From NCBI GenBank assembly GCA_944326425.1, contig CALVDX010000014.1:1-55493 (forward strand): a stretch of DNA of 55,493 nucleotides, read 5' to 3'. Each line of letters opens with the position of its first letter. The stretch's first letter is position 1. Below are positions 33,634 through 37,667 of this stretch, piece after piece. A model generated the notes under the pieces. It saw only the letters and a list, made by a program, of their open reading frames with translations, did not search any database and had not been told where the DNA came from. The translations under genes were made by a program, and so were the position numbers. Source of the stretch: Candidatus Gastranaerophilales bacterium. GTDB lineage: Bacteria; Cyanobacteriota; Vampirovibrionia; Gastranaerophilales; Gastranaerophilaceae.

Positions 33634-34221
33634 TTGAAGCCCTGTGTCCGTGTACCGAAAAACGGTTATTTACCTGTTTTAGGGGCTGCGCAAAATGTTT
33701 CCATAGCATACACTCCGGTAACAAATGCTGAATACGCCCGTTTTTTAAGAGAAACAGGTTACAGCAGAATACCTAAAGACTGGACAAATGGTGTTATGCC
33801 TAAAGGGAAAGCAAGTTATCCTGTAATAAATGTTTCATATAATGATGCTTTGTCGTACTGTAACTGGTTGTCACAAAAAAGTAAAGCTGCGAGCTACCGG
33901 CTTCCGACAGAAAAGGAGTGGGAGCAGGCTGCGGGACATATGCCTAAGGATGCCGATTTTAATGCAGGGGAAAACAATGGTGTGACTCCTGTAAGAGCAT
34001 ATTCTCAAACTCTTTCTGCCTCAGGTGCTATAGACATGTGGGGAAATGTTTGGGAATGGACATCTACCGTAAGGAGAAATCAGTCAGGAAAACAGTATGC
34101 AGTTAAAGGCGGGGCCTGGAATTCTGCAAGAACTGAGTGCCGTACCGAGGACCGAACAGAAAGCCGGAATCCTGATAGAGGATATAGTAATGTAGGTTTC
34201 CGTGTCGTTCGTGAAATGTAA
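33634..34221 (+). CDS. SUMF1/FGE-sulfatase domain protein, start uncertain
   Basis: At least 195 residues with clear domain marks: TPVTNAEYARFLRETGY, YRLPTEKEWEQAAG, DMWGNVWEW, KGGAWNS and GFRVVRE. True sulfatase-activating enzymes need two cysteines after the RGGSW-like motif; here only one is present (TEC), so this is more likely a non-catalytic or different SUMF1 domain. The frame opens without an ATG; TTG 33634 lacks a Shine-Dalgarno. An ATG at 33573 lies 5 bp after a -10 element but in another frame, so an N-terminal frameshift is possible. A sulfatase-like gene lies convergently next to it. Confidence 0.75.
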   Translation: MKPCVRVPKNGYLPVLGAAQNVSIAYTPVTNAEYARFLRETGYSRIPKDWTNGVMPKGKASYPVINVSYNDALSYCNWLSQKSKAASYRLPTEKEWEQAAGHMPKDADFNAGENNGVTPVRAYSQTLSASGAIDMWGNVWEWTSTVRRNQSGKQYAVKGGAWNSARTECRTEDRTESRNPDRGYSNVGFRVVREM

Positions 34222-34231
34222 CCGGATATAT

Positions 34232-36004
34232 TTATAATATTTGAGCGAGCAGTCTTTCAATTATTATTTGCGGTGACGGATTAATCAGAATTTCATACTG
34301 AAAACAATTCCTTTTATTTTTGAATAACACTTCGTTAAAGTATTTTTCTGCGTAGTGCGCCTCTAGCAAGCTTATAAATACTGCGTCCGGCTGCAGCTTG
34401 TATATACAATCCGGTGCTATAACATTTCCGCCAAGTTCTTTATTATATACAGGTTCTTTAAAGTTGTTATATTTTATATCCGAAAATCCTACGATATTAA
34501 AATCTGATAGATTATAATTATTTTTGAGCTCCTTGAAAAATATTCCTGTTCCGTAGAATATAATACGTTTGTTTTTATATTTTTGTTTTAGTTTTGCATA
34601 TTTTTTAGAGAAATGGTTTTTATTCCAGATTTGTCCGTAATTATCGACTATTATATGTTTGTTTTCAAGAAGCGGGAAATTAGTATTTAGTATATTGTTG
34701 AATAATATGCGGAAAAGATTAACCAGCGAACAATTATCCGGCAGGCTTTTAGTATATTTATTATTCCCGTATATTGCCAGAAGGATTTTAAACTTATCCT
34801 CTTCTTTTTCTGCACTTACCGAATGATCTCCATGGATTAAAATAATTGAATTCGGGCGCATATTTTTTTTGAGTTCATCAATGGTATTTAGTAGTTTTTT
34901 GTTAGTGTATTTGAGATATGTAAAATAGTATTGCAGATTTCTGCTGTGCTGCGGCGGGATTTTACTTCCGTCCTCATTATACAAATATGGATAATGAGGG
35001 GCCATAAGGTGCCCGAAAAAGTATTTAGGCTGCAGAGATTTATCATTTACAAATTTAGAGAGTGTTCCGGATAGTTCTTTAAAGTTATTTGAGACATAAG
35101 TACACCCCAGAAAACATTGTAATATATATACTATTGAGTTAAAAGACAGGGCTTTTAGTAAGACCGGTTTAAATTCATGTTTGTTATTCAGCAGATGTTT
35201 ATACAGGTTAAAGGTTACTGTATTTATTTTGTATCCTGCATTTTTTAAATAATTAAATACTTTATTTTCTCCGTAATATTTAAGTGCTTCTGACGGCAGT
35301 GCGGAGCCCGTAATATTTTCAATATAATCCATGTTTAAAACGGATGGCACTGAACAAAATGTGTAGTTGTAATTGCTTTTTGCTTTAGTGCAGATATGAA
35401 AACCGCGCTTGAGTAATTCATCTTTAAAATAATTGTCACAGTACTCTACGCGGTCAAAACCTGTATTGGCATCGGTTATTATATGATAAATATCCGGTAA
35501 ATCTTCGGGGATATTAGTGAAAGAACAGTTTGTCTTGTTTATTATATTTTTATTTCCGTAAAAATCTGTAAGTTTTTTAATAATATCAAGGAGTACAAAA
35601 AAACTTATGAAGGCTGATATACAGAATATTATTTTTGTAACTGCGGACGGTGAAAGCAGTTTAAATATAAGTACACTTAAACCTGATATTATTATACAAG
35701 CGGACATAAGCAACCCTGTATACAAAAGTTGATATTGCAGTAAAGAGCGTTTGTATGTACTGAATAATTGTATGAAGAAAATGTTAGAGTACAACAAAAG
35801 AAAAAAGTTTATACAAAAAACTAATTCAGAGATATAAATATTATGTATAAAAGTGTTTAACCCGAAAATTCCGCCGGTGATTATTAATGCCATAATTACA
35901 AGTGAAAAAATATAATCTTTGAGGGATATTTCTCCAATGTTTTGTGCAAATAAAGAATGCAGCGGGAGTGTGCATAATAAATACGGGAAGAGCAGTGCGA
36001 ACAC
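34232..36004 (-). CDS. Membrane sulfatase/phosphoethanolamine-transferase-like protein with extra C-terminal domain
   Basis: A 590-residue protein. Residues 1-145 hold about four or five membrane helices. An alkaline-phosphatase-fold domain follows: DIYHIITDANTGFD (171-184), HLMAPHYPYLY and LIHGDHS are its metal and active-site segments. From about residue 455 a second domain appears, with KRIIFYGTGIFF and NIVGFSD, resembling the nucleotide-binding fold used to name or modify sugars. It probably decorates a surface glycan or lipid. It starts with GTG after AGGAGG, 3 bp after the methyltransferase stop, so it is translated as part of the same operon. Confidence 0.8.
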   Translation of the reverse strand: MFALLFPYLLCTLPLHSLFAQNIGEISLKDYIFSLVIMALIITGGIFGLNTFIHNIYISELVFCINFFLLLYSNIFFIQLFSTYKRSLLQYQLLYTGLLMSACIIISGLSVLIFKLLSPSAVTKIIFCISAFISFFVLLDIIKKLTDFYGNKNIINKTNCSFTNIPEDLPDIYHIITDANTGFDRVEYCDNYFKDELLKRGFHICTKAKSNYNYTFCSVPSVLNMDYIENITGSALPSEALKYYGENKVFNYLKNAGYKINTVTFNLYKHLLNNKHEFKPVLLKALSFNSIVYILQCFLGCTYVSNNFKELSGTLSKFVNDKSLQPKYFFGHLMAPHYPYLYNEDGSKIPPQHSRNLQYYFTYLKYTNKKLLNTIDELKKNMRPNSIILIHGDHSVSAEKEEDKFKILLAIYGNNKYTKSLPDNCSLVNLFRILFNNILNTNFPLLENKHIIVDNYGQIWNKNHFSKKYAKLKQKYKNKRIIFYGTGIFFKELKNNYNLSDFNIVGFSDIKYNNFKEPVYNKELGGNVIAPDCIYKLQPDAVFISLLEAHYAEKYFNEVLFKNKRNCFQYEILINPSPQIIIERLLAQIL

Positions 36005-36007
36005 TAA

Positions 36008-37471
36008 TTACCTCCTCTCCATCAGGTAGATTGTGCGTTTAGAACCGGTGATTGCTCTTTTTTCAATTATTGTATAATAATTTGAAAATTCGTTTTCAAA
36101 ACATTCTTCTGTATAATTCTGGAAAATATCTTCTCTTGTGCTCAATAATATTTGGACTTTTGAGTCATCTTTGGGAACAAATTCAATAATCAGATACTTG
36201 CCTATTGTTGAGAAATATTTTGCAATATTATTAAAAGGCAGGTTATTAGAAATCGCAAGGTGGTGAATAAGAGCGAGTGCTAAAACAGTATCGCATGTAA
36301 ACCTTTCAGTAAAGCTGCAGCGTTCTTTATTTGCAAAACCGATAGCCGGGGTCGGATTTGTTAAATCGAGAGTGAGCGGCAAAATTCGTGTTTCGCGGTT
36401 TTGTTTTACCAGTTTATAGTTTTCTTCAACAGCGGCAGGGTCTATATCAAAGGATAAACAGCGGGTTTGGGGGCAGGCATTTATAACTGTGCGGGAAAAA
36501 TCACCCCTGTTTGCACCAAGGTCGCAAACAGTTTCAGGCCGGAGTTTTTTGATAAACTCCGTTATGATATCTCCTTTTTGAGTAAAGGCCTCCTTAGAAT
36601 AATTCGTATTTGTATAATAATTTCCCCATTCTGTTTTTAGTTCAGGTAATTTTAAATCCTTAATACAATCTTCAAGAGAGTCAATCAGCCCGGTCATTGC
36701 AAGTTTTGAAAATTTGGGGTTCAGCTTTTCCTGACAGGGACTTTCATTATCAATATTTTCTAAACAAGTGTTTTTTAGTCTGTTTTGAGCAAAAAACCGG
36801 CCCCCCCCCTTGTTCATATTTGTTTTATGACCTTTTATTTCACTCTTTTTTATAGAAATAGCGTGCAGGACTATATGGAAAAAAATTATTGGTCGGAGTT
36901 TGGCTTTTAATGGTAACAGTTTGCAGCATAACTCAATCGGGATACCGTCAATGTTTGTAATCAATAGTTTATTAAGACTAATATCTTTATAACTCATAAG
37001 AGCAAGCGGGGCGAGGAAATGTCTGCAAAACTGTCCGTATGCAATCCAGGGTTGGTTTTCTTTGTAGGTTTCAAAAGACAGCGTGTCAATAAAAATCGGT
37101 TTCCCTTCTTTAAACTGGATATTAAACGCAGACGCATCTTTTAATGACATATTGTATTTTAATGCTGTTTTTTGAATATTTAATGTTAAAAGCGCCGCCT
37201 CCTTTAATTCGGAAAAACACCATTCATACGGATATGATATATAATCAATTTGTTCCGGTTTTATGCATTTGTAAAGCTTTTCATTATTTATATCCGGCAG
37301 GCTTACTTCTTTATGCGGAATTAACATTTCCTTTTTTATTAACTCTTCATAAAGCCCGCAGGAGATGAATTTATCATACTCATCTTTATAAACGGTATTT
37401 ATTTGTCTGTATATTTCTCCGTTATGTTTAAATACAAAGCCGGAATTATCACGAAAAGAAGTGTTATTCAT
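36008..37471 (-). CDS. SAM-dependent methyltransferase interrupted by a poly-G tract
   Basis: A 487-residue protein. The N-terminal 210 residues resemble a kinase-like or helper domain found before this type of methyltransferase (KDASAFNIQF, IFIDTLSFE). The methyltransferase domain starts with motif I VCDLGANRGDFSR (315-327), then DIDPAAVEENY and ALALIHHLAI. Between them, codons 222-224 are encoded by nine consecutive G, exceptional in this AT-rich DNA; gain or loss of one base would cut off the catalytic domain. It overlaps the small membrane-protein gene by 8 bp. Likely modifies a surface glycan or its carrier. Confidence 0.82.
   Translation of the reverse strand: MNNTSFRDNSGFVFKHNGEIYRQINTVYKDEYDKFISCGLYEELIKKEMLIPHKEVSLPDINNEKLYKCIKPEQIDYISYPYEWCFSELKEAALLTLNIQKTALKYNMSLKDASAFNIQFKEGKPIFIDTLSFETYKENQPWIAYGQFCRHFLAPLALMSYKDISLNKLLITNIDGIPIELCCKLLPLKAKLRPIIFFHIVLHAISIKKSEIKGHKTNMNKGGGRFFAQNRLKNTCLENIDNESPCQEKLNPKFSKLAMTGLIDSLEDCIKDLKLPELKTEWGNYYTNTNYSKEAFTQKGDIITEFIKKLRPETVCDLGANRGDFSRTVINACPQTRCLSFDIDPAAVEENYKLVKQNRETRILPLTLDLTNPTPAIGFANKERCSFTERFTCDTVLALALIHHLAISNNLPFNNIAKYFSTIGKYLIIEFVPKDDSKVQILLSTREDIFQNYTEECFENEFSNYYTIIEKRAITGSKRTIYLMERR
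36801..36809 (-). repeat. Poly-G(9) homopolymer inside the methyltransferase gene
   Basis: Nine consecutive C on the plus strand, read as G9 in the coding strand. It lies in the linker between the two domains of the protein, the usual place for slipped-strand phase variation in surface-modification genes. Confidence 0.9.
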
Positions 37472-37667
37472 TTTTATTTTTTACAAAAAGATGAAAGATT
37501 TTTAATACAAGCTTTTTGCACAGATATAAAATACTTAACAGTCCGCCAGCGATTGTTTGAAAAATATAACTGCCGGAACCCGGATTAATATATGCCTGCG
37601 CCTCCTGATTATTAACCAGAAAAAATATTATTAATACTAAATAAGTATAATTTAAAAATCTTATCAT
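37464..37667 (-). CDS. Small membrane protein with YINPGSGSY motif
   Basis: A 67-residue protein: a signal-like helix (1-25), the motif AYINPGSGSYIFQ and a second hydrophobic segment, then a Lys-rich tail. The Y-I-(D/N)-P-G-x-G-S motif occurs in small membrane proteins near polysaccharide or sulfatase genes; function unknown. An extended -10 (TGG-TATAAT) stands six bases before the ATG, so the operon may start with a leaderless message. It overlaps the methyltransferase gene by 8 bp. Confidence 0.75.
   Translation of the reverse strand: MIRFLNYTYLVLIIFFLVNNQEAQAYINPGSGSYIFQTIAGGLLSILYLCKKLVLKIFHLFVKNKNE

What the first reader, a model, noticed from the sequence alone, without database searches (positions are those of the whole stretch)
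36801..36809. Poly-G(9) tract inside a surface-modification methyltransferase: likely phase-variable operon
Nine consecutive G occur within an AT-rich coding sequence, in the linker between an N-terminal domain and the SAM-binding domain (codons 222-224). A change of one base truncates the catalytic half. In Campylobacter, Helicobacter and Bordetella such G-tracts switch surface-glycan genes on and off. Here the operon also encodes a small YINPGSGSY membrane protein and a membrane sulfatase-like enzyme, so cell-surface decoration is the plausible output.
Basis: partly seen in the sequence, partly recalled or inferred. Interest (0 to 1): 0.7.

Follow-up and report, generated by a model that had tools for sequence, protein, structure and literature searches.

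The report
Poly-G switch in glycan-capping enzyme gene
A run of nine Gs lies in the floppy joint of a two-part, probably cell-surface-modifying enzyme of a gut cyanobacterium relative, where a one-base slip would remove only the methyl-transferring half; relatives carry many similar runs in surface genes, so it is probably a random on/off switch, but it has not been seen to change length.

Summary
The G9 tract is real: it lies on the minus strand, inside CDS 36008-37471. It sits in a disordered linker (residues 215-250) between a kinase-like N-domain and a SAM methyltransferase. G8 or G10 would stop translation after 231 or 240 residues, sparing the kinase-like half and deleting the methyltransferase. 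One G9 alone is weak evidence: 0.06-0.09 such runs are expected per window, roughly 2-3 per genome, against 19 observed. No same-species reads were available, so length variation is untested.

Comparative evidence favours a contingency locus. In 40 operon loci from 39 other family genomes, only G327 has a G/C run of 7 or more: two independent poly-C tracts in the same operon, both out of frame. Congeners carry poly-G/C tracts in acyltransferase, glycosyltransferase and adhesin genes, some ON and some OFF. Other genera carry up to about 115 G>=9 tracts per genome, many inside prepilin-like leaders and mostly out of frame. Against it: all six congeners lack the tract, and mismatch repair genes are intact. 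Best reading: a probable, unproven poly-G switch between full-length kinase-methyltransferase and kinase-only forms.

The parts
36801..36809 (-). G9 tract (C9 on + strand), CDS nt 663-671, codons 221-224
36008..37471 (-). 487-aa kinase-like / SAM methyltransferase gene carrying the tract; in frame (full-length) at G9
36833..37471 (-). N-terminal domain (residues 1-213), protein-kinase-like fold; K111, D112, N117, D129 invariant
36722..36829 (-). Disordered linker (residues 215-250, pLDDT <50) containing the tract
   Evidence: variable in length in relatives
36749..36805 (-). 57-nt (19-codon) insertion relative to the closest relative G006, which has only G5 at this point; no other good copy in the four genomes searched
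36011..36637 (-). C-terminal class I SAM methyltransferase domain (residues 279-487), lost on a one-base slip
37464..37667 (-). 67-aa small membrane protein with YINPGSGSYIFQ motif, first gene of the conserved cassette; overlaps the methyltransferase start
34232..36004 (-). 590-aa membrane sulfatase-like (PF00884) enzyme, starts 3 nt after the methyltransferase stop

Best explanation
The G9 tract is a translational phase-variation (contingency) tract. Slipped-strand replication occasionally adds or removes a G. At G9 the cell makes the full two-domain enzyme. At G8 or G10 translation stops after 231 or 240 residues, leaving the kinase-like N-domain and deleting the methyltransferase; loss of translational coupling may also lower the sulfatase-like gene 3 nt downstream. 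By analogy with WbdD, the enzyme probably phosphorylates and methylates the end or a side group of a surface polymer, so the switch would change a methyl-phosphate-type decoration to phosphate only. Shown here: tract, frame, truncation points, predicted domain folds, linker disorder, conserved cassette, independent out-of-frame tracts in the same operon elsewhere. Inferred: slippage in this species, the glycan substrate, kinase activity and the phenotypic switch.
For: Tract is in frame and a +/-1 slip truncates right after the first domain. It lies in a pLDDT<50 linker between two well-folded domains. In 40 operon loci from 39 other family genomes with the gene, only G327 has any G/C run >=7: a C10 in the methyltransferase gene and a C9 in the sulfatase-like gene, both out of frame. 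Congeners and the own genome carry coding tracts in surface genes: Acyl_transf_3 (own G12, G003, G004), GT2 (G003), AlgX-like (G002, G13, out of frame), adhesins with tracts in the leader (own C10 twice; G002 G11 ON and G9 OFF). Other genera of the family have long G tracts in prepilin-like leaders, mostly OFF with some ON. In Campylobacter, tracts of 8 or more G are experimentally variable and SAM methyltransferases are common phase-variable genes (PMC6321876).
Against: No length variation in this species could be tested. All six congeners and the other family homologues except G327 lack a tract. One G9 is within genome-wide chance. Most G>=9 tracts of this genome are outside genes. MutS1 and MutL are present. 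The G327 methyltransferase gene has a second frameshift, so it may be a decayed copy or an assembly error rather than an OFF state.
Confidence: 0.55

Rival explanations
1. The tract is a neutral accident: a G-rich stretch that arose with the 57-nt linker insertion in this species and is tolerated because the linker is unconstrained. It may slip now and then but has no selected role.
For: Species-specific; absent in all six congeners; the linker is variable and disordered; 2-3 such runs are expected per genome by chance; mismatch repair is intact.
Against: Independent C10 and C9 tracts in the same operon in another genus while 39 other operon loci have no G/C run >=7; other coding tracts in the genus fall mainly in surface genes, with ON and OFF examples.
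Confidence: 0.3
2. The tract works by transcriptional or ribosomal slippage: every cell makes a mixture of full-length enzyme and kinase-only protein, with no heritable switching.
For: A run of nine Gs is a possible slippage site (general knowledge), and the out-of-frame products end soon after the kinase-like domain, so a stable short form is conceivable.
Against: No conserved tract in homologues, which a required two-product design would need.
Confidence: 0.1
3. The G9 is a MAG assembly or sequencing artefact and the true length differs.
For: Long tracts in related genomes sit at contig ends or scaffold gaps, showing that they trouble assemblers.
Against: G9 keeps a 487-aa ORF fully in frame with homologues across both domains, which a wrong length would break.
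Confidence: 0.05

Closest known systems
Poly-G phase-variable SAM methyltransferases of Campylobacter (e.g. UbiE_3 G8-10 in C. jejuni; several in C. fetus; PMC6321876)
   Same: G8-G10 tract in a SAM methyltransferase gene; a one-base slip truncates the protein
   Different: Different phylum (gut Cyanobacteria/Melainabacteria); tract in an inter-domain linker that spares an N-terminal kinase-like domain; length variability not shown
WbdD, kinase-methyltransferase chain terminator of the E. coli O9a O antigen (PMC3482155)
   Same: One protein with a eukaryotic-type kinase fold and a class I SAM methyltransferase
   Different: Reverse domain order (kinase-like first), no C-terminal coiled coil, compact N-domain, no detected sequence relationship, substrate unknown here
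Phase-variable adhesin and pilus genes with homopolymers in the leader (e.g. neisserial pilC, chlamydial Pmp; from general knowledge, not checked here)
   Same: Tracts in leaders of adhesins and prepilin-like genes in the relatives of this genome
   Different: In these relatives dozens of prepilin-like genes per genome carry the tract; this is context, not the window locus itself

Membership tests
Translational poly-G phase-variable (contingency) gene | G/C tract of at least 8 within a coding sequence | tested here: met
   G9, CDS nt 663-671
Translational poly-G phase-variable (contingency) gene | One-base change shifts frame and truncates the product | tested here: met
   G8 stops after 231 aa, G10 after 240 aa
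Translational poly-G phase-variable (contingency) gene | Tract length varies between clones or reads of the species | not testable with these tools
   one genome per species held; no reads; metagenome scans capped at 0
Translational poly-G phase-variable (contingency) gene | Same operon shows tract-linked out-of-frame states in relatives | tested here: inconclusive
   G327: C10 and C9 tracts out of frame, but its methyltransferase gene has a second lesion; other relatives lack tracts
Translational poly-G phase-variable (contingency) gene | Genome or genus carries other such loci in surface genes | tested here: met
WbdD-type kinase-methyltransferase | Protein-kinase-like domain | tested here: met
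   N-domain model: all 50 listed VIA rows are protein kinases or kinase-fold domains, Z 8.7-9.7 (top row rmsd 4.2, 180 aligned); Foldseek best E only 1.2e-3
WbdD-type kinase-methyltransferase | SAM methyltransferase domain | tested here: met
   Foldseek E 1.7e-8; VIA Z up to 18.6, rmsd 2.5, 175 aligned; Pfam Methyltransf_12 E 1.4e-4, below its curated cut-off
WbdD-type kinase-methyltransferase | Domain order methyltransferase, kinase, coiled coil | tested here: not met
   order here is kinase-like then methyltransferase, protein ends at residue 487; WbdD layout from PMC3482155
WbdD-type kinase-methyltransferase | Detectable sequence homology to WbdD | tested here: inconclusive
   profile searches of PDB sequences list no WbdD chain
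WbdD-type kinase-methyltransferase | Phosphorylates and methylates a glycan end | not testable with these tools
   biochemistry needed

The most novel reading that the evidence does not exclude
The Gastranaerophilales family (non-photosynthetic gut Cyanobacteria) runs a genome-wide poly-G/poly-C contingency system on its surface. It includes large repertoires of prepilin-like genes switched by G10-G14 tracts inside the leader, adhesins and glycan enzymes. The window locus is one of these switches, toggling a kinase-methyltransferase between bifunctional and kinase-only forms.
Probability: 0.45. Interest if true: 0.8.

Novelty: new member of a known kind. Interest (0 to 1): 0.6.

Why it matters
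Two full-text searches pairing Melainabacteria with 'phase variation' or 'slipped-strand' found no report of homopolymer switching in this lineage. If true, gut cyanobacteria diversify their surface much as Campylobacter and Neisseria do, while keeping MutS and MutL. The locus also offers a testable case in which a slip converts a bifunctional kinase-methyltransferase into a kinase alone.

Tried and rejected
Idea that the linker insertion is a mobile repeat carrying a G run: rejected, the stretch has no other good match in four genomes searched. Idea that the tract belongs to the intergenic GGGG-TAAATG repeats of this genome: rejected, the flanks differ. Idea that hypermutability comes from loss of mismatch repair: rejected, MutS1 and MutL present. 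Pfam and NCBIfam gave no name for the N-domain and sequence profiles found no PDB relative of it, hence the fold search. The whole-protein VIA search was filled by the methyltransferase domain, so the N-domain was folded alone. Genome contigs returned only other species, the nearest 67% identical. The first operon scan skipped loci whose motif differed and was repeated on all 40 loci. No same-species strain comparison was possible.

Full report
Observation. Nine Cs at 36801-36809 on the + strand are nine Gs in the minus-strand gene 36008-37471. They cover CDS nt 663-671, codons 221-224, K-G-G-G. It is the only G/C run longer than 6 in the window. Markov models of order 1-4 expect 0.06-0.09 G/C>=9 runs per window, thus roughly 2-3 per 2.0 Mb genome; the genome has 19. 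Most of those are intergenic, often followed by TAAATG/TAAATA. So the tract alone does not exceed genome-wide chance; its interest rests on position and comparison.

The gene. The protein has homologues at 42-75% identity in congeners and in MAGs whose record titles name several phyla (titles not verified). In most of the distant loci it stands between a small membrane protein with a Y-[IL]-[ND]-P-G-[ST]-G-S motif and a large membrane protein; the window's own large protein has a Pfam Sulfatase match, E 2.4e-9. In the window the small gene overlaps the methyltransferase start and the sulfatase-like gene starts 3 nt after its stop.

Structure. AlphaFold2 with 19 sequences gives mean pLDDT 83.8, with residues 215-250 below 50. 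The C-domain is a class I SAM methyltransferase (Foldseek E 1.7e-8; VIA Z up to 18.6, rmsd 2.5, 175 aligned). The N-domain, unnamed by Pfam, was folded alone (pLDDT 86.6). All 50 chains listed by VIA are protein kinases or kinase-fold domains (Z 8.7-9.7; top row rmsd 4.2, 180 aligned). The best Foldseek E-value is only 1.2e-3 and Z is modest, so the fold is likely rather than certain. K111-D112...N117 and D129, invariant in the alignments, fit a kinase catalytic loop and metal-binding Asp; that assignment is my inference.

What it works like. A kinase plus methyltransferase in one polypeptide recalls WbdD, which phosphorylates and then methylates the end of an O antigen (PMC3482155). The domain order is reversed and no sequence homology was detected, so it may work like WbdD but is not filed as a member.

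Effect of a slip. G8 gives a stop after 231 residues, G10 after 240, G7 after 239 and G11 after 232. All of these spare the kinase-like domain and delete the methyltransferase. G9 is the full-length state.

Is it a switch? Direct evidence would be length heterogeneity in reads or strains; none was available. Against: the closest relative G006 (75% identity) has G5 here and lacks a 57-nt linker insertion; the other congeners have no tract; mismatch repair genes are present. For: the gene was found in 41 of 333 family genomes. Forty operon loci from 39 other genomes were fetched; 39 loci have no G/C run of 7 or more, although a few are cut at contig ends, and G327 has two. In G327 a C10 lies in the methyltransferase gene, in an N-domain loop, and a C9 in the sulfatase-like gene between its membrane part and its catalytic part; in both cases the downstream part is in another frame. 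G327 belongs to another genus and its tracts are C, not G, so they arose independently. Its methyltransferase gene has a further frameshift, so decay or assembly error is possible; the sulfatase-like gene shows a single break, at the tract.

The genus. Coding tracts in the own genome: G12 near the end of an Acyl_transf_3 protein, and C10 in the leaders of two large adhesin-like paralogues, one of them checked to have Chlam_PMP repeats. In congeners: Acyl_transf_3 (G003, G004), GT2 (G003), FrhB-like (G003), AlgX-like out of frame (G002), a glycosyltransferase-like gene (by eye) out of frame (G005), and the adhesin leader with G11 in frame and G9 out of frame in one genome (G002). The adhesin leader tract is C in one species and G in another. 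Non-surface exceptions exist, such as a response-regulator/GGDEF gene (G001).

The family. G015 has 115 tracts of G>=9. In 27 sampled G015 genes the tract (G11-G14) lies about 9-16 codons after a Shine-Dalgarno ATG and before FTMAEILLSLTIIGVVAAI, which resembles a prepilin cleavage motif; 6 are in frame with that ATG and 21 are not. Eight of the 21 have a start codon without a Shine-Dalgarno in the open frame, so they are not strictly OFF. A pattern for G8 followed by the motif hits 37 of 146 family genomes and its reversed control hits none. The N_methyl Pfam matches are weak (E 0.002-0.006, below cut-off), so 'prepilin-like' is the safe name. The own genus has no such hit in this search.

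Verdict. A translational contingency locus is the best reading (0.55), a neutral run in an unconstrained linker the main rival (0.3). Tracts of 8 or more G are experimentally variable in Campylobacter, where SAM methyltransferases are common members of the phasome (PMC6321876), so the kind is known; the lineage and the bifunctional enzyme are new to it as far as the searches here show. The assignment of the family to Candidatus Gastranaerophilales rests on two public contigs (CALVAQ010000001.1, 182720 bases; CALUVO010000087.1, 36823 bases) whose lengths equal those of family contigs G249:C1 and G286:C87.

Noticed in passing
Family relatives G015, G028, G102, G146, G164 and others (L079-L142, L214-L233): Many prepilin-like genes per genome carry G10-G14 inside the leader, just before FT[LM]AE[VI]L; most are out of frame, a few in frame (27 sampled in G015: 6 ON, 21 not; 7 in G028: 1 ON, 6 not). 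Looks like a large phase-variable pilin repertoire.
   Followed up: partly
Own genome L062 and L067; congener G002 L156 and L162: Large adhesin-like paralogues have a homopolymer in the leader: C10 in the own genome, G11 (in frame) and G9 (out of frame) in G002.
   Followed up: partly
G327 operon, L275 and L319: Independent C10 and C9 tracts in the methyltransferase and sulfatase-like genes of the same cassette, both out of frame, plus a second lesion in the methyltransferase gene.
   Followed up: yes
Own genome, e.g. L054, L059, L064, L065, L072: Intergenic repeats, some tandem at about 53-55 bases, with G8-G11 followed by TAAATG/TAAATA; nature unknown.
   Followed up: no
G020 (L245-L253): 89 G>=9 tracts but almost none before a prepilin motif; several share flanks such as TAAACCGCTCATACCAAAGGTTTTGGCG.
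   Followed up: no
L143-L153: Three-gene cassette (small DPGTGS membrane protein, kinase-like/methyltransferase, large membrane protein) is conserved in MAGs labelled as several phyla.
   Followed up: partly
G015, G006, G102 contigs: Some contig ends and scaffold gaps (NN) fall at or near long G tracts, so tract counts from MAGs are probably underestimates.
   Followed up: no
window 33634-34221 (+): Convergent FGE-sulfatase-domain gene (E 5.9e-34) next to the sulfatase-like gene; whether it acts on it is unknown.
   Followed up: no
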